Shown one piece after another: positions 4,651 through 64,000 of a stretch of DNA of 64,000 nucleotides. The stretch lies in the NCBI RefSeq assembly GCF_029784135.1, contig NC_073746.1, positions 259,198,994 to 259,262,993 of the forward strand, in the 5' to 3' direction. The number at the start of each line of letters is the position of its first letter. Positions within the stretch are counted from its first letter, which is position 1. The DNA comes from Toxorhynchites rutilus septentrionalis. Its lineage: Eukaryota; Arthropoda; Insecta; Diptera; Culicidae. The notes under the pieces were generated by a model that was not told the DNA's origin, searched no databases, and saw only the letters and a program-made list of their open reading frames with translations. The position numbers and the translations under genes were made by a program.

Positions 4651-5159
4651 ATGTGTGTATTTAGAAAAATTTCAATAATTCATTGCGCTCATCCAAAAAG
4701 GCTTCCAGCTCGCCGGCGATGCGCCTAGCTTTAGTCGAATTGAGATTACTTGCGTATGTATGGAGTGAAAGTTTGATAAAGAGGTCGAAGTGCCATCTGG
4801 CATTTAACAACGTAAAAAAATTCGTCATGTTTGAAAAACGAACGGCTGATCATTTATTTGGTATTGTTTATATCAAAATACAAATATCACGATTAAAAAT
4901 AGGAGATAGTGGTGAAAATTTTCTATACATGTATTTTTCGAAACCAAATTTATGCAGAAAATACAAAAATAAAATTATTCAGAAAAAAAAATTTCTTGCA
5001 TATGACACCTCAAATCGATATTAAATATACAGTAATCGGTATCCTGGCGGTATCATATGGTCGGTGTTAAGTCATACCGGGCCATGTGACATTTTTATGA
5101 TTTCGAGAAAAACGAACATAAAGTTTAATGCTCTGCAATTTTCAAAGCATTTAGTTTTT
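4651..5159. other. AT-rich spacer, no gene recognised
   Basis: An open frame of 113 codons (4683-5024, plus) shows no recognisable domain and AT-rich composition, and is most likely chance. The stretch ends in T5 immediately before a family palindrome. Confidence 0.35.
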
Positions 5160-5635
5160 GACGTAGGACTACGTCTAACCGGAAGATGTAGGGTGTGAAA
5201 TGAAAATCTAGGCACTGAACAAGTAGGAAAAAATGCAAGATTTGGAACGCTTATAACTCGGGCATTTCTCAATAGATCGCAAAGGTGTTTGCATCAATTG
5301 ATAGGAAATATATCTACGCATCTATCATAACGAATAACATTTCATTTTTCTTGAGATAAACAATTGAATAATTTGATTGGTCCATTTTGTGCTCCTCAAA
5401 TCGTACCGACCAAAACGGGCAACCAGAGCAGCAGCGAAATAGAATGAAGCACGATTGGGAAGAAAAAAGAAAAAAAATGAACGAAACATTGGTCGCAGTC
5501 TCACACATACGTAATTCTCGAGTCAGCCAGTCAGCTTAAAAATCCCCGCTCCGATGCCGTAACGATCATTCTCATCCAAACCATACACCACATCGTTTCG
5601 CATCACATCACATCAACAAACCAACACAAGCAGCC

Positions 5636-5933
5636 ATGTCTGGACATGGCAAAGGAGCAAAGGAGCAAAGGAGGATCGCGACGATAAGAAAACCCGCATT
5701 CAGAACAGACTACAATCGGTTCCGTGGACACCAAGACAACAACAGGCAGTTGCAGTGAGTGGCGAGTGGCAAACGCAATCGCAAAAGCAGGTAGCAGAAG
5801 AAAAAAGTTTGTTCTTTATTCAAACTACTTTGGTGGCAAATCCAGAACAAGGCGGCATCGAGGGCGTTCGAAATGGTTTTTTTCAAAACCACGAGTATTG
5901 AGTTTTATAAATTGGAACCATTCCATAAAACAC
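5636..5933 (+). pseudogene. Histone H2A pseudogene, internally deleted (copy A)
   Basis: The ATG at 5636 opens MSGHGKG, the H2A N-terminus, then an internal deletion joins directly to sequence matching the region around ARDNKKTRI of H2A (here encoding RDDKKTRIQ in another frame). Normal insect H2A is about 124 residues. Here the central histone fold is lost and the remaining 3' part is frameshifted, so no histone can be made. The start is chosen because the leader just before the ATG (ACACAAGCAGCC) is shared by copies C and D. Downstream, at 5934-5949, is the histone 3' stem-loop. Product identity is confident; loss of function is evident from the sequence. Confidence 0.75.
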
Positions 5934-5949
5934 GGCGCTTATCAGGGCC
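5934..5949 (+). terminator. Histone mRNA 3' stem-loop (H2A, copy A)
   Basis: GGCGCTTATCAGGGCC fits the replication-dependent histone stem-loop (6-bp stem, 4-nt loop) with one stem mismatch, G opposite G at the fourth pair. The same mismatch is present in copies C, D and E. Confidence 0.7.
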
Positions 5950-6173
5950 ATTAAACCTTTCAAAAAAAGAGTTCACGAAATACAGTTATATAACATGCAT
6001 TCTAAAATAATATCCAAAATAATAATAAAACACAAATTGATTTTTTCATAATTTGTTTGCCAGGATATGATGGGTATGTGAATTTGTCAGTTGTTCTGAG
6101 TTTATTGATGGTTGTGGACTTTCGCAATTATTCAATTTTCACCAATTCTTAAATTGCCTCCAGATTGAAAGTA

Positions 6174-6399
6174 CAGTAATTTACATTTATTTCAACATTT
6201 AGCTAATTGGACGGACATGTAATGCAACATATTTGGTTGGACATTTTTGTAAACATAGAAATCGGGATCCAAATTATGATCCCACATTGAAAGTCGACAC
6301 TGTACTACTGTCATCGCAGATGTTCAATTACAGGTTAAAATCGCTTCCAATGCGACACTGAGTGGTGCTTCGGCACGTCGCATTAAGTGTAATTTACTG
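6174..6399. mobile_element. TA-flanked MITE with CAGTAATTTACAT termini
   Basis: 226 bp, flanked by TA on both sides (6172-6173 and 6400-6401). The left end CAGTAATTTACATT and right end AATTTACTG are inverted. It is related to the clean copy at 13925-14182. TA duplication and ends suggest a Tc1/mariner-superfamily MITE. It lies between the H2A and H2B pseudogenes of copy A. Confidence 0.75.
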
Positions 6400-6556
6400 T
6401 ACAACATGTCACAATCTGGATGGGAAGTAATTTTCTAACTGTGAAAGCTGTGGCGAGTGGCAAACGCAATCGCTAAACAGGAAGGTTTAGCCGAACAAGA
6501 TGGGGATATCGAGTGATAACAAAACCATAAACTCTTTAGATTAAAGATGATTTTGT

Positions 6557-6572
6557 GGTCCTGAAAAGGACC
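6557..6572 (-). terminator. Histone mRNA 3' stem-loop (H2B, copy A)
   Basis: The reverse strand reads GGTCCTTTTCAGGACC followed by ACAAA, a perfect histone 3' stem-loop with the usual A-rich flank. It lies about 45 bp past the H2B stop codon. Confidence 0.85.
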
Positions 6573-6615
6573 CTTTTTAGGGTTTGCTTCCGGATCAGCA
6601 GTCGGAAAACGCTCT

Positions 6616-6965
6616 TTACTTGGAGCAGGTATACTTCGTCACCGCTTTGGTACCTTCGGAAACCGCATGCAAGTTCACCGGGCAGCAACAGACTGATTGC
6701 GATCTGAATTTCCCACGCCGTAATGGTTGACCGTTTATTGTAGTGGATCAGACGCGGAGCTTCTGCTACGATACGCTCAAAGATGCATTGACGCTCATCG
6801 TCTTTGATGAGAAACCGGTGTCGGAATGATCCTGATTCAGCACCTTATGATGTAGATAGCATATGATTCCTTCTCCTTCTTCTTGTCGGTTTCCGAAATA
6901 TTCTTCTGCGCCGTGCCGAACTTTTTGGCGTCTTTTCCACTATTCCACTAGTCTTCGGTGCCTTC
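6616..6965 (-). pseudogene. Histone H2B pseudogene (copy A)
   Basis: The reverse strand encodes, in broken frames, the H2B landmarks in order: KTSG near the N-terminus, [19 protein letters not shown], a degraded central region, [23 protein letters not shown], then [17 protein letters not shown] sequence ending in TAA at 6616-6618. Insect H2B is about 124 residues, so near full length is represented, but frameshifts and a stop after YAIYI break it. H2B is a nucleosome core histone; this copy cannot make one. It converges on the H2A pseudogene at 5636, and its perfect 3' stem-loop is at 6557-6572. Confidence 0.8.
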
Positions 6966-6984
6966 GTGTTAGAAACAACTGCAT

Positions 6985-7140
6985 GTGAATGCAACGAGCG
7001 AACAAATCGTAATGAATATATTTTTTTGCCATCGCTGCATTTTAACGCTCATTCGTTCGTCTCGTTGGACTCGCCCCTTTGGCTGAGTCTGCCGATTTGT
7101 CTCTATCCTGTGAGTGTGTACCGCTAGAGTACAAAACGCG
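6985..7140 (-). promoter_or_regulatory. H2B upstream region (degraded histone promoter)
   Basis: This segment directly precedes the H2B pseudogene. It is shared with 37085-37315, where it lies between divergent H2B and H2A remnants, and with the end of copy D. I infer a shared divergent histone promoter; no convincing TATA box is visible. Confidence 0.4.
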
Positions 7141-7240
7141 CGGACCCCACGAGTTCCAGTAGAAGTACTAGGAAATTCATAGTAAAAGGAATTTGTAAAG
7201 GTTAAAAAATAATCAATTAACAGTTCTGCGATTGAACCCA

Positions 7241-33194: not shown

Positions 33195-33838
33195 CTAGAA
33201 GTGGGTTATATCCGTGATATAACCGCAAGGTAGACGTAGGACTACCGCTGGCTCTGTTATCATTCGTTTTAAATTTCATCTGAATGAATTCTCAACGAAA
33301 TTGACGAAAAGATTGATGAAAGTTTTCCTTGTTAGAGTGTGAGTGGATGATTATAAGTACACCTAGGATTTTCTACGCGGGGGATACGTACCTCGTAAAA
33401 AAACCGCGTTAACTGAACAATCCACGTGAACAAACTCGTAAAAAACACTCGTACAAAACCGCCTAAACAACCTGAGTGTATAAAATTGTTATTAACATGA
33501 AATACTATTTCGAACTAGTTTGCGTGGTTTTGCAAAAGCAACTGATGAAGTTGCAGCACATTCCGATCAATACAAAAGCAATCATCGTCAATGAGCTGAT
33601 TTCAATAGTCTGTTTCCAAATGACTTTTTAAGCTATTGAAACGATTTTTTGTATCAATAAGTGACAATCATATAAATCTTTGACATTTTATCTTTCGTAT
33701 GAAGTGATTATTATTTCACTCCATTCAGCCAGTAAAGAGGTATTAACGTTCAAAACCGTGTACTCCAGCGTCACTCTCTCGTTTTCGAAACTTTGAACTT
33801 ACACCCCGGTACAGAAATAAAAGACGTAGTCCTATGTC
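33195..33838 (-). mobile_element. T-run family element, short complete member
   Basis: 644 bp. Read on the reverse strand it starts with GACATAGGACTACGTC (33838-33823), preceded by T5, followed by ACCGGGGTGTAAGTTCAAAG and the CTATTGAAA motifs of the promoter-type cargo. It ends with the GCGGTTATATC hairpin terminus and CCCACTTCTAG, then T6. Both ends are present, so this is a compact non-autonomous member. Confidence 0.75.
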
Positions 33839-34130
33839 AAAAATATATTTTTAAACTGTAAATAATCGAGTCCAACCTGTAATAGATTTTCAGGTGGAAT
33901 GTATACACTTTCAAGATGAAAATTACGAATGAAAAATCATCTTTCTATATTTAATATGTGATTTTTTATATATGAAATATATAAAAAAATATATCTAATA
34001 TCTAATATGTAGATCTGCAGTGACGACGTCTGATATTGATATACGATTAGGAAGGCATATTATTCTCTATCAGTTTACCAGGACCCAAGTCAGTTTTAAA
34101 TTGTTCATATTTTAAATGAAAACTTTTACA
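33839..34130. other. AT-rich spacer
   Basis: TA-rich with no feature that I can support. Confidence 0.3.
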
Positions 34131-34185: not shown

Positions 34186-36174
34186 TTAGTCTAAGTTCCT
34201 TAATCTACTTTTGAACACGTATTTAGACAGATTAAAATCAAATACAGCACTTACATTATTGAACGATCTAACACAGTTATCAAAAGGATTGTTGTACCCA
34301 TACATTGCTCTATGACGGTAACTACAAATAAATCACGCTCACGAAGTTGACGGAAAGGTGCGTACAAGTTGATATTTTGCAGAAGAGAATGGCAGTCTAT
34401 GTTTCCAATGATGAGGTCTAATATAAAAAGTCTCTGAAGGTTGCTGCGTCTATCGGCTAGAGTTTCAAGATGAATGAGTCTACAGCGACTTCGATAGTCC
34501 GGCAGATTTGTTGGATCATTCCACGGAAGTTGTCGAAGAACATATCGTATGAAGCTGCGTTGAACCCCTTCCATCCGAATACTCTGGATTGCATGATAAG
34601 TCGACCATACGGGAGCAGCACACTCCATGATGCTGCGAACAATCGAACAGTATAGTGCCTTTAGAGCGTATGCATCGGTGAAGCCACTTGCATTGCGTCG
34701 GATAAATCCAAGGTCGGCAAAGGCCTTTGCGGTTGTCGCGCTTACATGTTCGTTGAACCGGAGTTTGCTGTCAACAGTGACCCCTAGATCACGGATAGTT
34801 TCTACACGCTCCAGAACCTCTGAATGGATGGAATTTTTAAAATCTAATAGGGATTGTCGGCGGGAAAACGAAATAAATTTGCACTTTTTGGTGTTAAGCT
34901 CCATCCCGTTCTCAGTACACCACAGAGATAACTCGTCCACATCAGCTTGAAGTGCGCAGCAGTCTAGATGAGATGATATCACTTTGTAGATTTTTAGGTC
35001 GTCGGCGTACATCAGCAAACTCGATTTCAACCGGAAGCAGAGATCATTATTAAACAAAATGAATATCAGCGGTCCAAGAACGCTACCTTGAGGAACTCCT
35101 GACGTGATGGAGAAAACGCGTGAGTGAAATCCGTTCAGTTTGACAAACGCTCTCCGGTCAGATAGATACAAGCGTAGCCATTCGGTGATCCAATCAGGGA
35201 AGCCAAGATATTTAAATTTGGCAATTGCCAAGTCCAGAGGTACCTTGTCGAACGCCTTAGAGAAATCGAAGTATATCGCATAAATCTGGTGTCGTTTTCA
35301 ATTTTCGAACACAGGAAACTCACGTAGGACATCAGGTTGGTAGTAGCAGATCGCTTCTGCACGAAACCATGCTGGAGCTCCGATATCAATGGTCGGGAAG
35401 CGGCATACAGAGCATCGTGAACCAAATGCTCGAACACTTTTAACAGAGAACGTAAAATCGAGACACCTCTGTAATTCTCAATTGCATGATTGTTGCCAGC
35501 TTTAAAAATCGGAGTTATCGAGACCAGCTTCCAGGCATCCGGAAATACACCTTCACTGAGTGACCTGTTGAAAATTATCGTCAGTGGTATCAGCAGTGAA
35601 TCGGCACATTCTCTTAAAAACAGTGGCAGTATATTGTCCGTGCCGGGCCCTTTCGAAACTTCCAACTTACTCAGGGCTACAGATATTTCGTTTTGGCTCA
35701 AAACTGGAAGCGGACAACTCAGATTATACGCAGGGCAGGTTCTTACACTATCAGGGGAGAATGTTGGCGATGCTGTGCCATAAACATTCTCGAAGAATCC
35801 AGCAAAACTGTCTGCTAACTCGTGAGGTGAAGAGATAGGCGAGTTCATAAATGTCATCTCGACAGGAATTCGATTAGGTTGCTTGCGACTACGTATAAAC
35901 GACCAAAAGGATGACGGATTTTGTCTCGCACTCTGCTGCAAATATTCGATGTAGCTACGAAAAGCTACATACTGGTGATTTGTGTACTGTGTTTCTAAAG
36001 ACTGCAAGTTGGTACGGTTTTCGGCAGTTCTAGCTTTAAAATATTTCTTGCGTGCTTTACGAACGATGTTTCGGAGATGTTGTAACTCAGGTGTCCACCA
36101 GGGTTGTCGGAAACAATAATTTCGACATCTTCTACGCGGAACACGTCGCTCCAGAATATTGTACAACTTCTCAT
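34186..36174 (-). pseudogene. CR1-like ORF2, reverse transcriptase part
   Basis: From 36174 downward: FYEKLYNILERRVP, a linker domain (WWTPEL, NPSSFWSFIRSR), then reverse transcriptase blocks VSKGPGTDNI, ISITPIFKAGN-like, NYRGVSIL, and LQHGFVQKRSATTNL. Near 35283 a single-base change of frame separates this from FDFSKAFDKVPLDLA, the first catalytic Asp block, and then GVPQGSVLGPL and YADDLKIY, the active-site block. A second frameshift near 34320 leads to the C-terminus ending at TAA 34186-34188. It copied the element's RNA at the target site. The two frameshifts and the upstream insertion make it inactive, but the active-site residues persist, so decay is recent or moderate. Confidence 0.85.
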
Positions 36175-36352
36175 AAAAAAGACGGGTGGGTAATGTCGGT
36201 GACATAACCGGAGTGACGTAGGACAAAGGGGACAGCTTTTGCTAAATATATATTTTAAATATATTGTTTTATTTTCTTTTCCTACGTGTATTCCTACCTA
36301 TCTACCTGAAAAATGGAATAGTTTACTGTTTACTCTTTATGAACATGTTGGG

Positions 36353-36368
36353 GGTTCTGAAAAGAACC
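36353..36368 (-). terminator. Histone mRNA 3' stem-loop (H4-like, copy C)
   Basis: The reverse strand reads GGTTCTTTTCAGAACC, a perfect 6-bp stem with TTTC loop matching the replication-dependent histone consensus. It lies downstream of the H4-like relic. Confidence 0.8.
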
Positions 36369-36399
36369 TTTGGTGTTGTGTTTTTGCGTTTTTTTATAA

Positions 36400-36640
36400 A
36401 CTTGATTCTTGATTTTTTTTCTAAAGGCTTTGTACTTATCAAATGTTCAACGTCGGGCATCTTTCGGCGTATACACATATCGTACAATCAAAATTATGGC
36501 TGTGATAGGGAATGCACAGGTGGTCATCAGCTCGTTCACTATCATATATTTCACTATTGAGCACATTACCGTACATTAAGCTGTGGTTTCGGAGACGAAT
36601 GAATTGTAAGATTTGTAGTCTCCGCAAACAAAGTAAATAA
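36400..36640 (-). pseudogene. Probable histone H4 relic (copy C)
   Basis: Nucleotide-level resemblance to the 3' half of H4 genes: on the reverse strand a GTGCTCAA stretch (VLK), a GATAGTGAACGAGCTGATG stretch (like IRDAV), ACCACCTGTGC, ACAGCCAT (TAM) and GTGTATACGCCGAAA (like VYALK) occur in the H4 order. It is followed by a perfect histone stem-loop at 36353-36368. No open frame remains. The same relic is at 63720-63960. The call leans on position and stem-loop as much as on similarity; an H3 fragment is the alternative. Confidence 0.4.
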
Positions 36641-36899
36641 AAATGAAAAAGAACTGAGATTTTGGAGACGAACTCTACGATCTGTCGAGAAATAAACGAG
36701 CTATAAGCGTTCTGAAAAACCAACAGTAAATACAGGGACGGATGACCTTCGGATTAAAGTCCTATAAAATAAGAACAGAGCAGCAGGAAATACATAGCTC
36801 ATCGTGTTGCTCCTTATTTATTCCTCTATGCAATGCAGATGTAACGTCAGTCAATTTTCCACATCAGTTATCATCAGTTATCTCTATAATCGCTGTTAG

Positions 36900-37056
36900 G
36901 TATACTGGCACCAATCCGTTCGGCCTAGTTACCCTTGCGGAGCAATCAGTGAATGAGACCAACAGGGAACTGGAGACCTGCACGGTTCGAGTGAGACTTT
37001 GCCTTTCCCTTAACATGTCCTCCTTTGTTACGTCCACACGTCCACGTTGCTGCTTG
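36900..37056 (-). pseudogene. Histone H2A 5' fragment, second copy (copy C)
   Basis: On the reverse strand the sequence corresponds to the H2A N-terminus (KGGxVKGKAK, then NRAGLQ and FP), then GCTCCGCAAGGGTAACTAGG for LRKGN, followed by a deletion, with no ATG (the start is mutated). It lies divergent to the H2B remnant, as H2A and H2B do in many insect histone clusters. It matches the H2A pseudogene at 62800 better than the one at 38265, so two H2A lineages are present. Confidence 0.65.
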
Positions 37057-37084
37057 TTTTCTTTTTATGATGTGATGCGATGCG

Positions 37085-37315
37085 ATGTAAAACGATGCCG
37101 TACAACCACACTGGTTTACGGTTTGAAAGTAAATGAGATATTTTTTTGGGATCCGCGCGTTTTATACTCTAGCGGTACACGCTCACAGGATAGAGACAAA
37201 TCGGCAGACTCAGCCAGAGGGGCGAGTCCAACGAGACGAACGAATGAGCGTTAAAAGGCAGCGATGGCAAAAAAATACATTCATTACGATTTGTTCGCTC
37301 GTTAGATTCACATGC
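37085..37315. promoter_or_regulatory. Shared H2A/H2B divergent promoter remnant
   Basis: This lies between the second H2A fragment (minus) and the H2B 3' remnant (plus). It is the same segment as 6985-7140 (reverse). The H2B coding region that should follow on the plus side is deleted, and the sequence jumps to its 3' stem-loop. Confidence 0.5.
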
Positions 37316-37326
37316 AGGCTAAAAAG

Positions 37327-37342
37327 GGTCCTTTTCAGGATC
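37327..37342 (+). terminator. Histone mRNA 3' stem-loop (H2B remnant, copy C)
   Basis: GGTCCTTTTCAGGATC, equal to the perfect H2B stem-loop of copy A except for one changed stem base. The H2B coding region is missing. Confidence 0.75.
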
Positions 37343-37489
37343 ACAAAATTATCTTCAATCTAAAGAGTTTATTTTTTTTTGTTATCACTCGATATCCCCA
37401 TCTTGTTCGGCTAAACCTTTCTGTTTAGCGATTGCGTTTGCCACTCGCCACAGCTTTCACAGTTGGAAAATTTCTTCCCATCCAGCTTG

Positions 37490-37607
37490 GGACATATTGG
37501 GTCATAATATGGACCCCGAACTCTATGTTTACAAAAATGTCCAACTAAATATGTCGCATCACAGGTCCGTCCAATTAGCTAAATGTCGAGATAAGTGTAA
37601 ATTACTG
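37490..37607 (-). mobile_element. Deleted TA MITE (copy C)
   Basis: It retains the CAGTAATTTACACTTATCTC end (37607 downward) and the first half of the MITE. The second half is missing with the same junction as in copy D (56115-56225). Confidence 0.65.
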
Positions 37608-37801
37608 TACTTTCAATCTAGAAGCGATTTAAGAATTGGTGAAAATCAATAACCTCAGAACAACTGCCAAATTCACATACTCATCAGATCCTGGCAAACA
37701 AATTATGAAAAAATCAATTTGTGTTTTATTATTATTTTGGATATTATTTTAGAAAGCATGTATTTTTTGTATTTCGTAAACTCTTTTTTGAAAGGTTTAA
37801 T

Positions 37802-37817
37802 GGCCCTGATAAGCGTC
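37802..37817 (-). terminator. Histone mRNA 3' stem-loop (H2A, copy C)
   Basis: The reverse strand reads GACGCTTATCAGGGCC. It carries the G:G stem mismatch shared by all H2A copies, plus one extra change. Confidence 0.65.
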
Positions 37818-38265
37818 TTGTTTTATGGAATGGTTCCAATTTAGAAAACTTTGTACTCGTGGTTTTGGCAAAAAAACCATTTCGAACGCCCTCGATGCCG
37901 CCTTGTTCTGGATTTGCCACCAAAGCAGATTGTATAAAGAACAAACTTTTTTCTTCTGCTACCAGCTGCCGTTTTGCGATTGCGTTTGCCACTCGCCACT
38001 CGCTGCAACTGCCTGTTGTTGTCTTGATGTTCACCAAACCGAATGTGTTCTGTTCCGAATGCGGGTTTTCTTATCGTCGCGAGCAGCTTTGCCAGCTAAC
38101 TCGATCACTTCGGCGGCCGAAACTATATAACGCCGGCTATGTGGACTGGTGCACTGGTACTAACGCGCTCGGCCTAGCTACCCTTGCGGGGAACTCCAGA
38201 TCAACACGGTTCGAGCGGGATTTTGCCTTTCCCTTTACTTTTCCTTCTTTGCCATGTCCAGACAT
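37818..38265 (-). pseudogene. Histone H2A pseudogene (copy C)
   Basis: The ATG at 38265 (reverse) opens MSGHGKEGKVKGKAKSRSNR, the H2A tail, then VDLEFP. A small deletion shifts the frame, so the LRKG and AERV region is read out of frame. AEVIEL and ARDDKKTRI follow in another frame, and the 3' part is degraded. The leader CACAAGCAGCC-type sequence and ATTGG box upstream (about 38520) resemble those of copies A and D. It cannot encode a complete histone. The N-terminal tail, with its modifiable lysines, is the best-preserved part. Confidence 0.8.
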
Positions 38266-38786
38266 GGCTGCTTGGGTTGGTTTGTTGATGTGTTGTGATG
38301 CGAACCGATGTGGTGTACGGTTTGAATGAGAATGATCGTTACGGCAGCGGAGCGGGGATTTTTAAGCCGACTGGCTGGCTCGAGAATTACGCATGTGTGA
38401 GACTGCGACCAATGTTTCGTTCATTTTTTTTCTTTTTCCTTTCCAATCGTACTTCATTCTATTTCGCTGCTGCTCTGGTTGCCCGTTTTGGTCGGTACGA
38501 TTTGAGGAGCACAAAATGGACCAATCAAAAATGGGCACATAGTGCATTTGGACAATACTTGATATTTCACAATTATTCAATTATTTATCTCAAGAAAAAT
38601 GAAATGTTATTCGTTATGATAGATACGTAGATATATTTCCTATCAATTGATGCAAAAACCTTTGCGATCTATTGAGAAATGCTCGAGTTATAAGCGTTCC
38701 AAATCTTGCATTTTTTCCTACTTGTTCAGTGCCTAGATTTCCATTTCACCCCCTATATCTTCCGGTTAGACGTAGTCCTACGTCAA

Positions 38787-39680
38787 TATACGTACCGTCT
38801 CATTCGTGTCCTTTCCGCGGAATATCTCAGCCCAATCGATATCCATGATCGCGTTATTCAACTCATAAAAATTGCATCGTCGAAAATCAAAACTATCGAC
38901 ACTATTTGACTCACTGTCGAACTGCAGATACGAATCGTTCACGTCAATTCGAAGAACGAACGGATTATGATGGCGGTCGATTTTGAGAAGAGCAGCTGGA
39001 GGTTCAATTATCTCGGCATCATTTGGTATATTCACGAAAGCCAAATCAAGCGTACGACTATTTGAGTTGAGCAGACTGTTGACTTGATGTAACCCTGAAG
39101 CAACCAGAGCGATTTCCTGTTCAGTAGATGCGTTGGACGGAAGCAAACTATTAACGTCCTCGCCGTATGACCATGACAACTGAGGCAGATTATAATCTCC
39201 AACTATTACGAATTTATCGGACTCCAAAGCGCGTTCACGGATCTGCTGTACTGCTGCAGAGTGCGTAGAATACAACGTCGGTGGTGAGTTCGGTCGGAGG
39301 TAAATTCCACACACAAAGATTGCCGAGTTACATAACTTGATGCGCATAGCTATTTGTTCGATATTCTCGCAGTCAACCAACTCAGCTGAATGGCATTCGA
39401 GACTGACATTAACGGCGATCAAAACACCTCCTCCACGTTGAAGATTGCTGGAAGCAGCACTGCGGTCACAGCGGAATACTGAGTAATTAGCAGCAAATTC
39501 GGAACTAGTGATATCAGAGCGAAGCCACGTCTCAGTTAGTACTACAACGTCGTATTCGCAGGTGGAGAGTTTCAAAAAGAGCTCGTGAGTTTTGGTACGT
39601 ATGCCCCTCACATTTTGGTAGTACACTGTCAAAAATTGCGGGTCGGTTTTGCGCGGTCTTATGTGATGACTGGCCAACAT
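38787..39680 (-). pseudogene. CR1-like ORF2, endonuclease part
   Basis: From 39680: an apurinic/apyrimidinic-type endonuclease with VYYQNVRGIRTK (N-terminal Asn), LTETWL (catalytic Glu), GGGVLIAV, VGDYNLP (catalytic Asp and Asn), LDLAFVN and KIDRHHNPF (SDHxP-type block). It nicks target DNA for target-primed reverse transcription. The frame is open to the point at 38787 where the T-run element interrupts it; the reverse transcriptase continues at 36174. ORF1 ends about 115 bp upstream. Confidence 0.85.
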
Positions 39681-43025: not shown

Positions 43026-45950
43026 GTTTGCGATGGGTGTTCATGTCAAGGCGCACATTAACATAAAAGTTGAAATTCACTATTGACAGGAACGTTGTTT
43101 TCATCCTCATATTTAAAGAAGTACGAACCTACGATTCCTCCGCACCAGGTATGGGCAAAATTGCATCGAAATTCGTTCAACAACACTCATTCACAGATAA
43201 AACTCACCCTCCTATTCTCCGTTTATGCCTCACTGTATTTGAGACAGAAAACATTCACCCATCATCTTCTCAAAGTTCATTCTCGAGTTAAACAGAAAAA
43301 TACTGTCTCGATTCCGCTCAGCTATACTCAGAGAATTTTGCATTCTCTCATTTGCCTCTCGGAATGACGTTAGACGGTAATAGGATCAAATTGGAAACTT
43401 TTGCTTGAGCCAGCGAGTGTTCGTTTTTCACTCAAATAGCAATCATTGAAGCCTCGATCGCGGCAATAAAATAAAAGTAGATAGTTGAAATTGAGTTGTT
43501 TCCTGTGCACTATTGCAATGGCACTTTTTTGTTTCTAGTATGGAATGATCTAAGCCAACGCAAAAGACCATATTAACGCAAGTTATTGGTGTGCGGGAAA
43601 GTAGATTCATGTGCATTGCCGGTAACAAATGCACTTGAATGCTGACAAGCAAGAGAGTACCGCGAGTAATCGGTTACATTCTTCTAACATAGATAATAAG
43701 AAAAAATGTCAAAACATTGAACTCCCGGCCCCGCCAGGCTAACGCCATTTGAGCCATTTGAGAAATATATATTTTGGAAAAAAAAAGAAGAGAGTAGAAG
43801 GGAAAATAAAATCATATATACACGCAGATTGAGTCTATTTTGACTCACTCGATATTTCGTTTCGTGCGATTCTTCCAAAGGAGTATTCATGCATTGAGTG
43901 TTGTTTTCCACTCTTTGTTTTGTTATGTTCACTCTCAGTCCCGAATGAAGATGGTCGGAGAATGCAAAATGATTCATCGTGAAATCTCACGACTGCTTGC
44001 TGCATTCTTTTCGCCATGATTATTCCAAGCAGATACCAGAGTGATTTATGATTAGATGTGGAGAAATGAGCGAATGAACATTTCCATACTTGCTCCGAAC
44101 CACAAACCGCATTATTGTATCCGCTACTAATGCCATTCTATAAAACAAAAAAACAGATTTTTAATTTATTTTGATAATAAAAGTCAATTATTCGTAAGAG
44201 TGGTTGGAAAACAAACCGATAACACAAAGAAGTTTGATCAATGTTCAAGAAGTTTGAATCTCTTTTTGATCAGGCCTCCTGTACAGTTGTTCATTCCATA
44301 GTTCCCAGAGCTAAAATTATTGATTTCTTTAAGCCCCGGAGAATTTGTAGCAGCCATCCTTACAACACAAATAAAAACACAGCTTCTTGTTTTGTTTCGT
44401 TTCACAATTTCGAGTAGGTACCAAGAAAGGTATATTACTCAAGGCAGTTAAAAAACTATCGTTTTCTTGCACCTTCTCCGTCAGCACCACTCACGCTAAC
44501 ATTATTGCAGAACCACAAGCATAAAGTTTTTCGTTAGATACTACTTCCAGCAATAAATTCCATTCTTTGCCACGATGAACCTCCACACGCAAACCCAATC
44601 AACTGAAAGTGTTTTCAAATTTCCTCTCAGTTTAAGTGGAAGCTTCGTATCCTCGCTGGCAGTGCATTTAATCTCACTAGCAGAGTTCTCCGCCTTCATC
44701 GCCTTCGACCGCATATTTGTTCTTTCAGCTGTAATAGATAAACTTTAACCCAACACCTCTAGTGTCATGTATTCGCCTAATGTTCAAACTACAGAAAAAG
44801 GCAACGACACTCGCTCAGAACTCCTACAAGAAGACGGTACTGGCAATCACTTTTTCACTTGAACTGTGTTGTACACCCGGGACAAGGTGTCATGTAAGAA
44901 GTGTCATGTTTGGTACTCCCCGAACTTCATCCGCCTTCCACCCCGAGGGAGCGTTTCGTGCTCTGTTACATTTTCACATTAATTTTTGCTGCTCTTTAGC
45001 TTTGGCCCCCCGATCCCACTTCTAGAACCCCCACAATATTCAACAGCAAACGCAACAACTTGAAACAAATGACTCTCAAACGGGTGCTTGGCACGAAAAA
45101 AAGGCTTCAACGGTCCCATTCCTGCCCGATCCTTGCCACCCCCGGGTTGCGTTCATGAGAAGGGTACTTTTTCTTCGCCTGACAAAAGCAAGTGTTCTCA
45201 AACTGACGCCCCTCTGCAATACCCCCGGTGGCGTGTCCCAGTCATGGTGATGGCTGCGAATTCGAGCTGCTTTCTCTGGGGGTTCCACTCCAACGGCGAG
45301 AACCGTAAACAGAAAACAATTCTTTCGACTGGCGAAAGCGCAGGTCGAGTTCTGTGTGACAAGTCTGTGAAGTATCAAACAGGCCAATTCGTGCTCTCCA
45401 CCTCCTTAGCCTTCACTTCTGCATGGGAGATGGAGGGAAGAGAGAAGTTAGAGAGTTCCGTTGCTGAGGACAGGGAATGTCATTTGAATGTGCTAAAGTG
45501 TCACTTAGTATCGCTGGTGCACTTGTGGTGATGATAATTTTTACAAGCATTTTCTCCAACATCATCAAAACGACGTTTTCGACGACAGGCTTGGAAGTGA
45601 GCTTGGGATGGTGCAGGGTGGCGCGCCGTGGAAAAGCCGAGAAGGTTTTTGATTTGCGACAAGCAACAGGTGAATAAAAATGTACATATTTTATGCTATA
45701 TATTCTCTGTCGGTACATTTTTGATACACAGTATTATTGGGAAACTTTAGGTATTGAATTTTGATCTTCAAAGCAAGCGGATACGTGATTATTGTTGCTA
45801 TAATTAACAAGAATCTGTGAAACTATAATAGAAAAACGAGGTACATAATTACATGTGTGTTTAACACTGTTCTGTATTCAAATTAATTTCAATTAATTTT
45901 TTACATACAAAAATGTTTCAAAACTTCCTTTGAAGTATCCTGTTCTTTTT
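43026..45950. other. Low-repeat sequence, no gene recognised
   Basis: No repeat family of the window is found here. 44270-45680 has higher GC. The longest frames (45088-45531 plus, 147 codons; 45477-45677 plus, with a hydrophobic stretch) have no domain that I recognise. Possible exon content cannot be excluded. Confidence 0.3.
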
Positions 45951-47356
45951 GACGTGGGACTACGTCTAACCGGAATATATGGAGGGTAAAATGAAAACCT
46001 AAACACAGAACATGCAGGAAAAAATGAAAGATTTCGAATGCTTATAGCTCGAATATTTCGTACTGGATAGGAGAGATGTTTGCATCACTTGATAGGGAAT
46101 ATTTCTACGCATCTATCGCAACTAACAAAATGTTGTTTTTCATTAGATAAACAATTGAATAACTGTAAAATATTAGGCGTTATCTAAACGCCCTAACTGC
46201 ATCGTTTTGATTGGCCCGATTTACGGTTTCCCTAACACAGCCATCAAAACCAAGCAGCCTTGGGGAAATCGGCATTGCAAATACATGAAAGTAGGGGGAC
46301 TTTTGTTCTCATCGAAAAATGTTCCCTAACACAGACTTTAAAACCAAGCAGCGAAATCGGCATTGCAAACACACGAAACTAGAGGCGAATGAACTGAAAA
46401 GTATAAACCCTCTTAAAGCCAAAAAGAAGAAGAAGAAACACACGAAAGAGCCTAGAGGCGAGTGAACTGAAAAGTTTAAACCCTCTTAAAGCCAAAAAGA
46501 AGAAGAAGAACACACGAAAGTAGGGGGAGCTTTTGTTCCCACCGAAATGTGTTCCCTAATAGAGATTTCTAAACCAAGGTGCCTGGAGAAATCGGTATTT
46601 CAAATTCATGCAAGTCGGGGGTATTTTTGTTCCGACTGGAATGTGTTTCCCTAACACAGACTTCAAATCCATGGAGCGTGGGGAAATCGGCATTGCGAAT
46701 CATACAAATCGGGGGCATTTTTGTTCCGATTGAAATGTGTTTCCCTAACACAGACTTCAAAACCGAGGTTTCTGGGGAAATCGGCTCTGCAAATAAATGC
46801 AAACTGCGAGTACTTTTGTCCTCGCTTGCCTTTGTGCAGAGTGGAATATGTCTGTCCTAACATGATCTTCTAAACTTAGGAACCTGGGAAAATCGTGCAG
46901 CCACTAGAAGCGAATGAACTTCCCAGTTTCAAGCAAATTCGAGATTCGAGAAGTATGTACACTTTTGGGATGTAAACTTCAGAGGGAAATGTAAAATAAA
47001 ATAATCGTTTGATAATTTTTTTTTTGTCTTTATTGGAAAGATTTTCAGCCTTAGGCTGGTTCATCAAACGTTTGATAATTCTTCCGTACATATATTTTGT
47101 TCTAGTCATCATACCAAACGTAAAAGGTCCGTCATTAAATTTACTTGTAACGAAGAACAATCAATCACAATAAATGAATTGACTTTACACGGCATTTGTT
47201 CATTTTTTTCACACACAGAGCAAATATATTGAACTCAATTGAATTTGGAAACTGTTTCATTCAATCAAGAATTTAATCAATACAAACGAATGATTGCTAA
47301 GCTAAGGTAGTTCCACGTCAACCTTGCGGTTATATCATAGATATAACCCACTCATC
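45951..47356 (+). mobile_element. T-run family element, minisatellite cargo
   Basis: Left palindrome GACGTGGGACTACGTC (45951-45966) preceded by T5; right hairpin terminus (about 47308-47356: CCACGTCAACCTTGCGG, stem GGTTATATC with loop ATA and stem GATATAACC) followed by T5. The first ~200 bp resemble the histone-cargo copies (TCTAACCGGAA, ACTCGAATATTTC, TTTGCATCA), so the 5' region is shared between cargo types. The centre is a ~94-bp minisatellite. No protein is recognised. Confidence 0.75.
46226..46880 (+). repeat. ~94-bp minisatellite with internal duplication
   Basis: Units start at about 46226, 46320, 46550, 46645, 46738 and 46851, each containing CCCTAACACAGACTTCAAA, GGGGAAATCGGCATTGC and a G-run before ATTTTTGTTCC. 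One unit is expanded by two copies of a ~70-bp segment (46381-46519) ending in AAGAAGAAGAAGAA. Related arrays lie at 51450-51700 and 53690-54110. Confidence 0.85.
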
Positions 47357-47456
47357 TTTTTATCTTCACAGCCGCGTGTAATACTCGCTGACAAAAAATA
47401 TTCAATATAGTTGACGAGTTTTTATGGAGTAACAATTCTCAAAATGTATCTTCGCA

Positions 47457-48184: not shown

Positions 48185-48472
48185 ACCTAGAAATTTGAAA
48201 AAATAAACAAAAATTTCCCTCATATTTCTGTAGTTTAGGCATTCAAGAATATACCATAGAAAAGACTTATCGAAAATCCTATTATTTACCATATTACAGC
48301 CATTTTAGTGATGCACTATCTAACCTGGTACGACCATAACAATGAATTTCAAACGCCTTTTCCTCAAAACTAGTTTTTTAAACTGGCGTACACGATATCT
48401 CAAGTTCTGCAAGTTCAAGTTCTATCAATGCGATAGCGGCATCCTTACTGATTCAGAATCTGTTCGATTTTT

Positions 48473-50092: not shown

Positions 50093-50119
50093 TTTTTTGT
50101 TTCAGATAACCAGAAGGGC

Positions 50120-54353: not shown

Positions 54354-54760
54354 TTTTTTTTAGAAGGTCTTGGTAAGGTATCTTCGGAAGAAATTGTATT
54401 CCGAAGTAGGAACGAAACAAAACCACGGGAAAAAACTTCAAATTAATAAGGGAACCGATAACGGAACGGATACGTGATTTATTTCGTCTGGTCGGACTAT
54501 CGGCGAAGAATCGTTACGACAGTATTGAGGTGAATGATTTGGTGTTCTCCCTTCACAGATAACCTTTCGCCGCCACCTGTTGGAATACGTTCAATTTTCA
54601 GGATTCCGCTCCTCATTGACAATCACAACACTTACCACCAGTGTTGCCACTCGTACAGATTTATCTGGAAAGGTACAGATATTTTCCTTTTTCTTGTACA
54701 GATTCTGTACGGTGCAGATTACAGATTTTCGTCATAAAGTATATATTGGTACAGATTTTT
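54354..54760. other. Spacer with TACAGATTT repeats
   Basis: 54650-54760 repeats TACAGAT-containing motifs, ending CAGATTTTT just before the next element. No gene. Confidence 0.35.
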
Positions 54761-55219
54761 GACGTAGGACGTCTAATCGGAAGATATAGGGGGTGAAATG
54801 AAAATCTAGGCACTGAACAAGTAGGAAAAAAATACAAGATTTGGAACGCTTATAACTCGAGCATTTCTCAATAGATCGCAAAAGTTTTTGCATCAATTGA
54901 TAGGAAATTTATCTACGCATCTATCATAACGAATAACATTTAATTTTTCTTGAGATAAATAATTGAATAATTGTGAAATATCAAGCATTGTCTAAATGCA
55001 CTATGTGCCCATTTTTGATTGGTCCATTTTGTGCTCCTCAAATCGTACCGACCAAAACGGGCAACCAGAGCAGCAGCGAAATACAATGAAGCACGATTGG
55101 AAAGGAAAAAGAAAAAAATGAACGAAACATTGGTCGCAGTCTCACACATGCGTAATTCTCGAGCCAAAAAGTCAGTTTAAAAATCCCCGCTCCGCTACCG
55201 TAACGATCATTCTTTGTGT

Positions 55220-55335
55220 GGCGGAGGTGGTAGCGCTGGAGTAGAATAGAGTAGAGTTTTCAAAGGGCCTTTCTCAAGGCTAGAGACGAATGAACTGCAA
55301 AAGTTTAAAGTCTCTATAATACAATACCTTCCTTC
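55220..55335 (+). repeat. AGAGACGAATGAACTGC repeat, copy 2
   Basis: Inserted in the H2A leader: ACGATCATTCT before and ACGATTATTCTCATCC after are duplicated flanks (approximately 55201-55212 and 55343-55354). It matches 60195-60315 and 11975-12110 (reverse). Confidence 0.7.
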
Positions 55336-55417
55336 CTTCCGTAACGATTATTCTCATCCAAAACGTGCACCACATCGTTTCGCATCACAACACATCAACG
55401 AACCAACACAAGCAGCC

Positions 55418-55880
55418 ATGCCTGGACATGACAAAGGAGGAAAAGTGAAGAGAAAGGCAAAATCCCGCTCGAACCGTGTTGGTCTGAAGTTCTCCGTAGG
55501 TGTACCCGCCAATTGCTCCGCAAGGGTAGCTAGGCCGAGCGCGTTAGTACCAGTGCACCAGTCCACCTAGCCGTCGTTATATAGTTTCGGTCGCCGAAGT
55601 GATCGAGTTGACTAACAAAGCTGCTCGCGACGATAAGAAAACCCGCATTCAGAACAGACCACATTCGGTTCGGTGGACATCAAGACAACAACAGGCAGTT
55701 GCGGCGAGTGGCGAGTGGCAAACGCAATCGCAAAACGGCAACAGAAGAAAAAAGTTTGTTCTTTATATAAACTGCTTTGGTGGCAAATCTAGAACAAGGC
55801 GGCATCGAAGGCGTTCGAAATGGTTTTTTTCAAAACCACGAGTACAAAGTTTTCTAAATTGGAACCATTCCATAAAACAC
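55418..55880 (+). pseudogene. Histone H2A pseudogene (copy D)
   Basis: The ATG at 55418 opens MPGHDKGGKVKRKAKSRSNR, then VGLKFSVG. After a rearrangement the out-of-frame LRKG, AERV, SAPVHLAVV series follows, and then in a third frame VIELTNKAARDDKKTRIQN. This is the most complete H2A in the window, about 80 of 124 residues recognisable. Frameshifts prevent a full product; the first frame stops at about codon 51. The usual leader precedes the ATG and the stem-loop follows at 55881. Confidence 0.8.
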
Positions 55881-55896
55881 GGCGCTTATCAGGGCC
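55881..55896 (+). terminator. Histone mRNA 3' stem-loop (H2A, copy D)
   Basis: GGCGCTTATCAGGGCC, identical to copy A, including the G:G mismatch. Confidence 0.7.
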
Positions 55897-56114
55897 ATTA
55901 AACCTTTCAAAAAAGAGTTTACGAAATACAGTTCAATGCATTCTAAAATATTATCCAAAATAATAATAAAACACAAATTGATTTTTTCATAATTTGTTTG
56001 CCAGGATATGATGAGTTTGAGAATTTGGCAGTTGTGCTGAGCTTATTGATGATTGGGAACTTTCGAAATTATTCAATTTTTACCAATTCTTAAATTTCTT
56101 CCAGATTGAAAGTA

Positions 56115-56225
56115 CAGTAATTTACATTTAGCTCGACATTTAGCTAATTTGACGGACCTGCAATGCGACATATTTAGTTGGACATTTTTGTAAACATAGA
56201 AATCGGGGTCCAAATTATGACCCAA
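56115..56225 (+). mobile_element. Deleted TA MITE (copy D)
   Basis: It starts CAGTAATTTACATTTAGCTC and stops mid-element at a junction (ATGACCCAACATGTCCC) shared with copy C. Confidence 0.65.
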
Positions 56226-56378
56226 CATGTCCCAAGCTGGATGGGAAGAAATTTTCCAACTGTGAAAGCTGTGGCGAGTGGCAAACGCAATCGCTAATCA
56301 GGAAGGTTTAGCCTAACAAGATGAGGATATCGAGTGATAACAAAACAACTAAACTCTTTAGATTAAAGATGATTTTGT

Positions 56379-56394
56379 GGTCCTGAAAAAGACC
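56379..56394 (-). terminator. Histone mRNA 3' stem-loop (H2B, copy D)
   Basis: The reverse strand reads GGTCTTTTTCAGGACC, one change from the perfect stem-loop of copy A. Confidence 0.75.
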
Positions 56395-56437
56395 CTTTTT
56401 AGGGTTTGCTTCCGAATCAGCAGTCGGAAAACGCTCT

Positions 56438-56810
56438 TTACTTGGAGCTGGTATACTTCTTCACCGCTTTGGTGCCTTCGGAAACCGCATGCAAGTTCAC
56501 CGAGCAGCAACAGACTGATTGCGATCTGAATTTCCCACGCCGTAATGGTTGACCGCTTATTGTAGTGGGTCTGACGCGAGGCTTCCGCTACGATACGCTC
56601 AAAGATGCATTGACGAAGCTCATGACGCTCATCGCATTCGATGAGAAATAAGTGTTGGAATGATCCTGATTCAGCACCTTTTGATGTAGATAGCATATGA
56701 TTCCTTCTCCTTTTTCTTGTCGGTTTCCGAGATATTCTTCTGCGCTGTGCCGAACTTTTTGGCGGCTTTTACACTATTCCACTAGTCTTCGGTGCCTTCG
56801 TGTTTGTTAG
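56438..56810 (-). pseudogene. Histone H2B pseudogene (copy D)
   Basis: The reverse strand has [20 protein letters not shown], then [18 protein letters not shown] (the H2B C-terminal helices; compare [15 protein letters not shown]). An out-of-frame [17 protein letters not shown] end follows with TAA at 56438-56440. The N-terminal half is visible in other frames ([18 protein letters not shown]). Frameshifts at the boundary of the C-terminal helix and in the N-terminal half disable it. It is longer in one frame than copy A (FERI to GELA uninterrupted). Confidence 0.8.
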
Positions 56811-57112
56811 AAACAACTGCATGTGAATCCAACGAGCGAACAAATCGTAATCAATGTATTTTGACGTAGGACTACGTCTTTCATTTCTATACCGGGGTGT
56901 AAAATCCAAGTTTCGAAAACGAAAGCGTTACGCCGGAGACCGAGATTTTGAGCGTTAATAGCTCCTAAACAACTGAACGAAATGGTATGATAAACACTTC
57001 ATTCGATAGATAAAATGTCTACGCGTTCTATACTTGTTACTTTCTGATCCAAAAACTTGTTTCAATAGTCTTAAAATTGCTTTCAAAACAGGCTATTGAA
57101 ATCACCAATCGG

Positions 57113-62647: not shown

Positions 62648-62799
62648 GCGTAGTTCTACGTCAACAATGCGGACGTATCTTGGACACAAAACGCGCGGAC
62701 CCGCTGAAAAATTTATCATTCTTTTTCAAACCGTAAATCAGTGTGGTTGTATGGCATCGTTTCACATCGCATCGCATCAAATCAACAAAGCAACACAAG

Positions 62800-63184
62800 C
62801 AGTAACGTTGACGTGTGGACGTGACAAAGGAGGACAAGTTAAGGGAAAGGCAAAGCCCCCCTTGAACCGTGCAGGTCTGCAGTTCCCCGTTGGTCGCATT
62901 CACTGATTGCTCCGCAAGGGTAACTAGGCCGAATGGATTGGTGCCGGAGCACCAGTATACCTAACAGCGGTTAAGAGATTCGGCCGCCGGAGTGCTCGAG
63001 TTGGCTTGCAAAACTGCTCACGACAATAAGAAAACCCGCCTACAGAACATACCACATTCGGTTCGATGGCAACAACTAGTCTCAGCGAGTGGCAAACGCA
63101 ATCGCAAAACGGCAGCAGGTAGAAGAAGGAAAAAGTTTGTTTATACACACTGCTTTGGTGGCAAAACCAGCCACCGTAAAACAC
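62800..63184 (+). pseudogene. Histone H2A pseudogene, second lineage (copy E)
   Basis: Reading from about 62815: [11 protein letters not shown], then [13 protein letters not shown], in a frame without a usable ATG. Then LRKGN, a stop, AE, and [12 protein letters not shown], with the H2A order [22 protein letters not shown] evident. LELACKTAHDNKKTRLQN follows in another frame. This copy is closer to authentic H2A than copies A, C and D ([12 protein letters not shown] is intact). Stops and frameshifts break it. Its stem-loop is at 63185. Confidence 0.8.
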
Positions 63185-63200
63185 GGCGCTTTTCAGGGCC
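63185..63200 (+). terminator. Histone mRNA 3' stem-loop (H2A, copy E)
   Basis: GGCGCTTTTCAGGGCC; matches the consensus loop, with the G:G stem mismatch seen in the other H2A copies. Confidence 0.75.
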
Positions 63201-63719
63201 ATTAAACCTTCCAAAGAAGAGTTATTAAAAGTTATTCACAATACCAATGCATTCTAAAGTGACATAATATGACATATAAAATGAACTGATTGTTTTTTTC
63301 ATGCTTGTTTTTGAATTTATTGGTGGTTGGGGTCTTTTAAATTGATCATTCAGTTTTCACAAACCCATACATGGTTTCCGAATTAAAAGTGGCTTCAAAA
63401 TACAACACATTGTATGCAGGATGGCATTAACGAATTTTCTCGGTAGCAAGAACTGCTTTCTTTGGTTGATAACTGATTTTGAAAATTGACTGACGTTACA
63501 TCTGCCTCGTATAGAAACATAACTAAGGAGCAATACGATGAGCTATGCATTTCCTGCTGCTCTGTTCTTATTTTAAAGGACTTTAATCCGAAGGTCATCC
63601 GTCCCTGTATTTACAGTTGGTTCTTCAGCTATAAGCGCTCGTCTATTTCTCAACAGATCGGAGAGTTCGTCTCCAAAACTTCAGTTCATTTCCATTTTTA
63701 TTTACTTTGTTTGCGGGGA

Positions 63720-63960
63720 TACAAATCTTACAATTCATTCGTTTCCGAAACCACAGTTTAAGGTACGGTAATGTGCTCAATAGTGAAATATATGATAGTG
63801 AATGAGCTGATGACCACCTATGCATTCCCTATAACAGCCATCATTTTGATTGTACGATATGTGCATACGCCAAAAGATGCCCGGCGTTGTACATTTAATA
63901 AGTACAAAGCCTTCACAAAAAAATCAAGAATCAACTATAAGAGAGTGAGAACAAAATGAG
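63720..63960 (+). pseudogene. Probable histone H4 relic (copy E)
   Basis: Same relic as 36400-36640. GGTAATGTGCTCAA (like RGVLK), GATAGTGAATGAGCTGATG (IRDAV region), ACCACCTATGC, ACAGCCAT, and GTGCATACGCCAAAA (like VYALK) occur in H4 order. No open frame remains. H3 is the alternative reading. Confidence 0.4.
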
Positions 63961-64000
63961 AAAGTTTGTAAAAAAAAACGCAAAAACACAACACCAAAGG

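What the first reader, a model, noticed from the sequence alone, without database searches (positions are those of the whole stretch)
36181..38784. Histone genes mobilised as cargo of a bounded non-autonomous element inside a retrotransposon ORF
Seen: the 2.6-kb segment has both family termini and carries two H2A pseudogenes, an H2B remnant, an H4-like relic and three or more histone stem-loops. It sits in CR1-like ORF2 between the codons for TVRI and FYEK. Known: H2A and H2B are divergently arranged in many insect clusters, as here. Inference: part of a histone cluster was captured by, or became, a mobile element and was spread as a unit; related copies are at 5160, 54761 and 62648. I am not aware of a described element of this kind, but could not search.
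Basis: partly seen in the sequence, partly recalled or inferred. Interest (0 to 1): 0.9.

Follow-up and report, generated by a model that had tools for sequence, protein, structure and literature searches.

The report
Rolling-circle transposon spreading dead histone genes
In a non-biting mosquito a rolling-circle jumping gene carries a captured piece of the histone gene cluster, and its shortened derivatives have scattered thousands of dead histone copies over the chromosomes.

Summary
The observation largely holds. 36178-38785 (minus strand) is one complete element inserted in a CR1-like ORF2. It is a HINE, the non-autonomous form of a Helentron (Helitron2-type rolling-circle transposon): palindromic 5' repeat, subterminal inverted copy and hairpin at 3', insertion in oligo-T, no target-site duplication. 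In that genome 20 of 20 fetched copies (19 sites) have the same two ends. Exact counts are 6,486 (5' terminus) and 3,306 (H2A double stop). The cargo derives from a divergent H2B-H2A pair of the C3 histone array and carries stops in 21 of 21 copies examined. An autonomous Helentron (Rep, PIF1 helicase, endonuclease) shares the 3' end (94%) and the cargo, so the element is an internal-deletion derivative; that partner's 5' end was not reached. Corrections: no H4 relic here, the H2B coding region is deleted in this copy, and only one stem-loop is strong; it belongs to the Helentron's own 3' UTR. Precedent: Culex Helentron-Cq-32A (H4 and H15 fragments, eight copies; PMC4067079). New: H2A/H2B cargo, scale, identified partner, and a transposase ORF between a captured histone promoter and a histone 3'-end signal.

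The parts
36178..38785 (-). the whole element (HINE with H2A/H2B cargo), element sense on the minus strand, 2.6 kb
   Evidence: same termini in 20 of 20 fetched copies
38769..38785 (-). 5' terminus TGACGTAGGACTACGTC (palindromic subTIR)
   Evidence: a 44-bp extension occurs 6,486 times exactly in the genome
36214..36224 (+). 3' subterminal inverted copy (GTCCTACGTCA in element sense), beginning 44 nt and ending 33 nt before the 3' T-run
36189..36209 (-). 3' hairpin GGTTATGTC-ACC-GACATTACC (one T-T mismatch); one stem base pair exchanged (A-T to G-C) against the other families of the window
38485..38785 (-). 5' region shared (about 76%) with histone-free sister elements at 45950 and 53416
38058..38265 (-). 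H2A pseudogene 1 (stop at Y39, frameshifts; homology ends at codon 77/78)
36898..37035 (-). H2A pseudogene 2 (TGA at R32 and TAG at Y39)
   Evidence: 3,306 exact genomic copies of the double stop
37147..37317 (-). captured H2B/H2A bidirectional promoter region
   Evidence: A 1469-1639 matches copy C 1821-1991; part of C (1878-1990) matches the host promoter at 89%
37318..37319 (-). deletion point: H2B coding region present in copies at 5159 and 54760 is missing here
36329..36373 (-). histone 3' stem-loop (Rfam RF00032), in the part shared with the autonomous Helentron's 3' UTR
36394..36409 (-). junction where the transposase ORF of the autonomous Helentron is missing
38786..39680 (-). CR1-like ORF2, 5' part, up to TVRI
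34251..36177 (-). CR1-like ORF2, 3' part, from FYEK (broken further on)
54760..56861 (+). copy B: 5' end, H2A1 and H2B pseudogenes; cut by another HINE inserted at 56862
5159..7155 (+). copy C: 5' end, H2A1 remnant, H2B pseudogene, promoter
62665..64000 (+). copy D: H2A2 pseudogene and 3' part; 5' part cut off at another HINE; 3' end about 190 bp beyond the window
45950..47365 (+). histone-free sister HINE; relatives 97.6-99.6% identical over the 249-503 bp compared sit inside the host histone array

Best explanation
The segment is a HINE, a non-autonomous Helentron. SHOWN: an autonomous-type Helentron in this genome carries a piece of the host H2B-H2A gene pair upstream of its transposase ORF; the HINE has the same 3' end and the same cargo but lacks the ORF, so it is an internal-deletion derivative; thousands of copies carry the exact terminus and the same dead H2A. 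INFERRED: an ancestral Helentron captured about 1 kb of the C3-type histone array as DNA (H2B 3' flank, H2B, bidirectional promoter, H2A to codon 77). The genes decayed, the H2A part was duplicated inside the element after it had acquired a stop, and the transposase was deleted. The Helentron protein then mobilised the derivative in trans by rolling-circle copying into T-runs. The cargo makes no intact histone.
For: Ends: 20 of 20 fetched copies at 19 sites show the same 5' and 3' end next to T-runs; I had picked them among the best places that reached both query ends. 5 of 5 further loci show both ends. No TSD: CR1 frame restored, 15 of 15 aligned relatives contiguous, two self-insertions whose unoccupied T-run is seen in other copies. 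Copy number: 6,486 exact 5' ends and 3,306 exact H2A2 double stops, reversed-pattern controls 0; 29 of 39 listed H2A2 lesions on the first 20 Mb of C1 lie 1.4-2.2 kb 3' of an exact 5' end on the same strand, 34 of 39 within 4.5 kb, 5 have none. Cargo dead before spread: stops at the same H2A codons in 21 of 21 copies; B and C share the H2B start loss and four frameshifts. Source: copy C is collinear with the host array over 724 aligned columns at 79%. H2A1 and H2A2 share 10 identical changes from host, permutation mean 2.1, maximum 8 in 20,000, and differ about equally at the three codon positions. Partner: 1,674-codon open frame with Helitron_like_N, PIF1 and Exo_endo_phos; 3'-terminal 223 bp 94% identical to the HINE; cargo, with the same Y39 stop, upstream of it.
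Against: The 5' end of the autonomous element was not found in the 5.1 kb read upstream of its ORF, so only the 3' end and cargo link the two. Transposition was not observed. Eight of the 10 shared H2A1/H2A2 changes are at third codon positions (one of them makes the stop) and could partly reflect an older host allele. H2B cargo against host shows a third-position excess (C 13/8/23, p 0.019; B 13/11/27, p 0.011), so part of that divergence arose under constraint, in the host or before capture. B and D may be halves of one element, so the window may hold three rather than four copies.
Confidence: 0.95

Rival explanations
1. The copies are orphon histone genes moved by segmental duplication or recombination, and the termini are chance or later insertions.
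For: L015 and L016 share flanks, so some duplication (or an unmerged allele) occurs; host arrays are large and repetitive.
Against: 19 distinct flanks with the same ends, insertion points inside T-runs with the unoccupied site seen, thousands of exact copies on both strands.
Confidence: 0.02
2. It is a TIR DNA transposon or MITE with gene cargo (Pack-TIR type), moved by a DDE transposase with target-site duplication.
For: An inverted repeat of about 11 bp near both ends.
Against: The repeat is terminal at 5' but begins 44 nt inside at 3', with a hairpin; no duplication at the CR1 site or at two self-insertion sites; the partner encodes Rep/helicase/endonuclease.
Confidence: 0.02
3. The stem-loop near the 3' end (36329-36373) is only the passive fossil of another captured histone gene and has no role in the Helentron.
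For: Stem-loops normally mark histone genes; Culex Helentron-Cq-32A carries H4 and H15 fragments (PMC4067079). Only one autonomous family was examined; its two copies are 99.75% identical over the 401 bp compared, so they are not independent, and another Helitron locus (L065) lacks it in the 8 kb read.
Against: It lies in sense about 470 bp 3' of the transposase stop, scores higher in the autonomous copies (40.5 bits) than in the HINE (35 bits), and AAAGAGT follows at histone-like spacing.
Confidence: 0.6
4. The histone cargo is functional and adds H2A expression.
For: Promoter sequence is well preserved.
Against: Stops in 21 of 21 copies, frameshifts and loss of H2A homology after codon 77, no third-position bias between H2A1 and H2A2.
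Confidence: 0.01

Closest known systems
Helentron-Cq-32A of Culex quinquefasciatus (Thomas, Vadnagara and Pritham 2014, PMC4067079; sections 8 and 12 read, otherwise found passages)
   Same: Mosquito Helentron with degenerate histone gene fragments bearing stops and frameshifts; palindromic subTIRs, 3' stem loop, TT insertion; non-autonomous derivatives.
   Different: There H4 and H15 fragments in eight copies; here H2A and H2B with their shared promoter, thousands of copies, in Toxorhynchites.
HINE / DINE-1 elements (non-autonomous Helentrons; PMC4067079)
   Same: Ends, hairpin, T-rich target, no transposase, high copy number.
   Different: Carries recognisable host gene cargo; that paper reports no gene fragments in the mite families.
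Gene capture by canonical Helitrons (maize, bat; mentioned in passages read of PMC5148889, and PMC4067079)
   Same: Gene fragments captured and amplified by rolling-circle elements.
   Different: Ends here are not TC...CTRR and the target is not A|T.
Pack-TIR elements of animals (PMC8277862, passages read)
   Same: DNA transposons carrying host gene pieces, including one H2B-related case.
   Different: TIR transposons; not this mechanism.

Membership tests
Helentron-derived HINE | palindromic subTIR (12-15 bp, 2-4 nt from the 5' end in the mite families) | tested here: met
   GACGTAG-GA-CTACGTC (16 nt), 1 nt from the end if only one T is counted as element, more if the T-run is
Helentron-derived HINE | inverted copy subterminal at 3' (about 38-60 bp away in the mite families) | tested here: met
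   begins 44 nt and ends 33 nt before the T-run, so borderline to the mite range depending on how it is measured
Helentron-derived HINE | palindrome near the 3' end | tested here: met
   hairpin with one exchanged pair against other families; folding z-scores of the three 3' ends tested only -1.1, -0.9 and -2.9
Helentron-derived HINE | insertion in T-rich/TT sites without target-site duplication | tested here: met
Helentron-derived HINE | autonomous partner encoding Rep, helicase and endonuclease and sharing the 3' end | tested here: met
   3' end 94% over 223 bp and domains
Helentron-derived HINE | autonomous partner sharing the 5' end | tested here: inconclusive
   not found in 5.1 kb upstream of the ORF; cargo fills the start of the stretch read, so the end may lie further out
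Canonical Helitron (Helitron1) | 5' TC, 3' CTRR, insertion between A and T | tested here: not met
   ends TG...GTC, T-run target
TIR transposon / MITE | terminal inverted repeats and fixed-length target-site duplication | tested here: not met
Culex Helentron-Cq-32A capture (H4 + H15) | H4 and H1 fragments | tested here: not met
   no H4 or H1 signal in this element (H4) or in L064 (best 20.8 bits, reversed control 23.1); a weak H4-like signal in another HINE of the window at 60248-60403
Replication-dependent histone 3' end signal (Helentron 3' UTR) | stem-loop followed by a purine-rich downstream element | tested here: met
   RF00032 40.5 bits in the autonomous copy; AAAGAGT 14 nt after the stem, host genes 14-19 nt in those printed
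Replication-dependent histone 3' end signal (Helentron 3' UTR) | use in vivo (SLBP/U7 processing, no poly(A)) | not testable with these tools
   no RNA data at hand

The most novel reading that the evidence does not exclude
The Helentron did not merely carry histone debris but captured histone gene control. Its transposase ORF lies between a captured H2A/H2B promoter (67-bp core with 1 mismatch to the host array) and a histone 3' stem-loop with downstream element. The transposase may thus be expressed as a replication-dependent, SLBP/U7-processed transcript, tying rolling-circle transposition to S phase; the sister HINE living inside the histone array shows that such elements reach the source. 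Odds lowered from 0.3 to 0.25 on checking: copy C of the window, a derivative, keeps the promoter nearly as well (89%), as does the first promoter copy of the Helentron, so its preservation is weak evidence for use.
Probability: 0.25. Interest if true: 0.87.

Novelty: new variant of a known kind. Interest (0 to 1): 0.62.

Why it matters
Histone capture by a Helentron was reported from one mosquito with eight copies (PMC4067079). Here it is a genome-wide phenomenon with an inferred order of events (capture, decay, internal duplication, transposase loss, burst), a likely autonomous partner and the parental array. Exact dead H2A copies (at least 3,306) outnumber the intact genes found (59 identical to the query and 5 more full-length) by more than fifty to one. 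It offers a clean system for how Helentrons capture multi-gene DNA, and raises the testable idea that a transposon has taken over histone-type control. A dispersed source of histone-like RNA may also bear on the unexplained histone piRNAs of Aedes (H4 there; PMC6411831 and PMC11286205, passages read), though no link is shown.

Tried and rejected
H4/H3/H1 relics: tblastn with reversed controls and a frameshift-tolerant scan of both strands for H4, H3, H2A and H2B (reversed control for H4 only). Only H2A and H2B stand out clearly. In element A the H4-like matches overlap H2A. An H2A score of 64 at 36532 lies exactly on the edge of the masked H2A2 peak and is taken as its tail.

The elements at 48472, 56862 and 58845 looked H4-like by eye. 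The scans gave one weak H4-like stretch, at 60248-60403 in the 58845 element (22.3 bits, E 0.054, against 20.8 for the best reversed match; 56 against 49). It is left open. Peaks for H3 (up to 62) and a further H4 peak at 10900 (54) show that the scan's background is high.

Relatives outside the genome: the 17-base terminus gave 0 hits in viral contigs and one hit in a bacterial genome, taken as chance. An ORF across the cargo gave no protein hit at E 0.01. Distribution in other mosquitoes is unknown; no collection of eukaryotic genomes was at hand.

Papers searched. No paper in this library pairs Toxorhynchites with Helitron. I found the histone-capture precedent only in PMC4067079. Most subscription papers, and the paper on histone piRNAs (PMC5416884), are not held.

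The 67-bp promoter core was chosen after seeing the alignment, so P 0.001 (0.007 at a 10% rate) is only indicative; over the 101 bp aligned there are 9 mismatches (8.9%), not clearly below the 13% of the dead H2B (44 of 338 sites). An ORF of 117 aa starts about 170 bp after that promoter, but my strict splice motifs found nothing and its first 37 residues have no Pfam match.
Full report
WHERE THE WINDOW IS. The window lies at G000:C3:259198994-259262993 of a 902.6-Mb assembly. Its three large contigs are 206,424,179, 333,097,027 and 345,355,930 bases. I take the host to be this non-biting mosquito (inference from lengths).

THE ELEMENT. 36178-38785 reads 5' to 3' on the minus strand. It begins TGACGTAGGACTACGTC directly after T and ends with GTCCTACGTCA, a hairpin and CCCACCCGTC before a T-run. 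The pattern TGACGTAGGACTACGTC with up to 3 mismatches has 21 matches in the window (several are the two strands of one palindromic site) against 0.03 expected. The 3' hairpin of this family (ATGTC/GACAT) differs from that of the other families (ATATC/GATAT) by an exchanged base pair; its folding scores are modest.

INSERTION SITE. Joining the flanks gives ...RGKDTNETVRIFYEKLYNILERRVPRRR... in one frame. In the 15 relatives that I aligned, of 120 listed, the protein is contiguous there. No base is duplicated or lost beyond T-run ambiguity. Two genomic copies (L012, L023) are inserted inside other copies of the same element, in T-runs whose unoccupied form is seen in other copies.

THE FAMILY. 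Twenty copies fetched by place have the same two ends; L015 and L016 share flanks, so 19 sites. I chose them among the best places that reached both ends of the query; one search also lists partial copies. They are 97-100% identical, and L010-L016 are near-identical to each other. Five more loci show both ends. The 44-bp 5' terminus occurs exactly 6,486 times and the 32-bp double stop of H2A2 3,306 times; reversed patterns 0. Variants are not counted, and not every 5' end need carry histone cargo. Of the 39 H2A2 lesions listed on the first 20 Mb of C1, 29 lie 1.4-2.2 kb from an exact 5' end on the same strand and 34 within 4.5 kb; 5 have none.

THE CARGO. tblastn finds H2A in copies A, B and D and H2B in B and C. 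The host has 59 places 100% identical to the H2A query and 5 more full-length open ones among 150 scored; by my count all but four of the other rows have internal stops, typically one TGA and one TAG. Two array types were seen. In the C3 array (L048) the order is H2B<- ->H2A, H3<- ->H4. Copy C is collinear with L048 969-1684 at 79% (H2B 3' flank, H2B, bidirectional promoter). H2A homology stops at codon 77/78 both in H2A1 (copy B) and in H2A2 (copy D). The C2-type array matches the H2B pieces less well (66-74%). So roughly 1 kb was captured as DNA, promoter and 3' flank included (inference).

DECAY BEFORE SPREAD. The stop at Y39 (host TAT, cargo TAG) is in both H2A pseudogenes of all 21 copies examined, with TAA in place of TAG in H2A2 of the seven copies L010-L016. 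H2A1 and H2A2 share 10 identical changes from the host (permutation mean 2.1, maximum 8 in 20,000); eight of these are third positions, so an older host allele may explain some. They differ from each other by 20-25% with no excess at third positions, whereas two functional host H2A genes differ 37 of 43 times at third positions. The H2B cargo does show a third-position excess against the host (13/8/23 and 13/11/27), as expected if part of the divergence arose on the constrained host side. B and C share the loss of the H2B start, an 8-bp insertion, two 1-bp deletions and a 5-bp deletion. The most economical order is capture, decay, duplication of the H2A part, then amplification.

THE AUTONOMOUS PARTNER. 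PF14214 finds Helitron-type Rep genes (132 matches among 150 scored candidates). One at C2:6.60 Mb has a 1,674-codon open frame with Helitron_like_N, PIF1-like helicase and Exo_endo_phos, the domain set named for Helentrons in PMC4067079 (passages). Its 3'-terminal 223 bp are 94% identical to the end of element A. Upstream of the ORF it carries H2A cargo with the same Y39 stop, and the promoter and H2B flank twice. Element A matches the upstream part to A 2377 and the 3' part from A 2392; the transposase lies in the gap. A is thus an internal-deletion derivative, although the upstream cargo is arranged differently from A. A second copy at C2:26.08 Mb matches over all 1,061 bp of ORF end and 3' UTR; the other 38 of 40 scored places match only the 3' part.

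THE STEM-LOOP. The strong histone stem-loop of element A is inside the part shared with the Helentron. There it scores 40.5 bits (E 2.6e-9; also in the second copy), in sense, about 470 bp 3' of the transposase stop. AAAGAGT follows 14 nt later, as in the host's histone genes. Upstream of the ORF lies the captured promoter: 101 bp at 91% to the host, a 67-bp core with one mismatch, against about 13% substitutions in the dead H2B. The core was picked after the fact, ORF and promoter are 3.5 kb apart, and a derivative copy keeps the promoter nearly as well (89%). Still, a histone promoter upstream and a histone 3' signal downstream of a transposase suggest that its expression follows histone rules. 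That is inference. The 8-kb locus L065 of another Helitron family has no stem-loop.

A POSSIBLE ROUTE. A histone-free sister HINE (the family of 45950; 97.6-99.6% over the 249-503 bp compared) is inserted 870 bp from H2B in L048 and at the same place in L050 and L051. Such elements therefore reach the histone array. Whether this insertion had a part in the capture is unknown.

KNOWN OR NEW. Thomas et al. [quoted passage not shown] The element here is the same kind with other genes, another genus, far larger scale and a visible deletion pathway. I found no other report in the library, which holds open-licence papers only. Hence: new variant of a known kind.

Noticed in passing
48472-50096, 58845-60975, 56862-58844, 33190-33839, 17592-20650, 60976 on, 25991 (minus), 51002 on: Other elements with the same terminal repeat and, where the 3' end was found, the hairpin GGTTATATC...GATATAACC; some nested or abutting end to end (60975/60976).
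   Followed up: partly
60248-60403: Weak H4-like stretch in the 58845 element, slightly above the reversed control; Culex Helentrons are known to carry H4.
   Followed up: partly
L048 1-249, L050 1-632, L051 1-632 (host histone array, C3:233.5 Mb): A sister HINE (relative of 45950) sits at the same place in three units of the histone array.
   Followed up: partly
L064 8639-8683 and L067 123-167: Strong histone 3' stem-loop plus AAAGAGT downstream element in the 3' UTR of an autonomous-type Helentron.
   Followed up: partly
L066/L064, about C2:6598572-6598672: Captured H2A/H2B promoter upstream of the transposase ORF, core almost identical to the host array; a 117-aa ORF (ATG about 170 bp on) follows it.
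   Followed up: partly
56862-62664: Copies B and D may be two halves of one histone element split by later HINEs, with about 100 bp lost.
   Followed up: no
L010-L016: Near-identical copies on C1 and C214 suggest a very recent burst.
   Followed up: no
C3:233546643 (H2B) and C3:233553741 (H2A): In at least one unit of the C3 array H2B and the next H2A are about 7 kb apart instead of 0.3 kb, as if something were inserted in their shared promoter.
   Followed up: no
46531-46794 and 53692-54094: 94-bp tandem repeats inside the histone-free sister HINEs.
   Followed up: no
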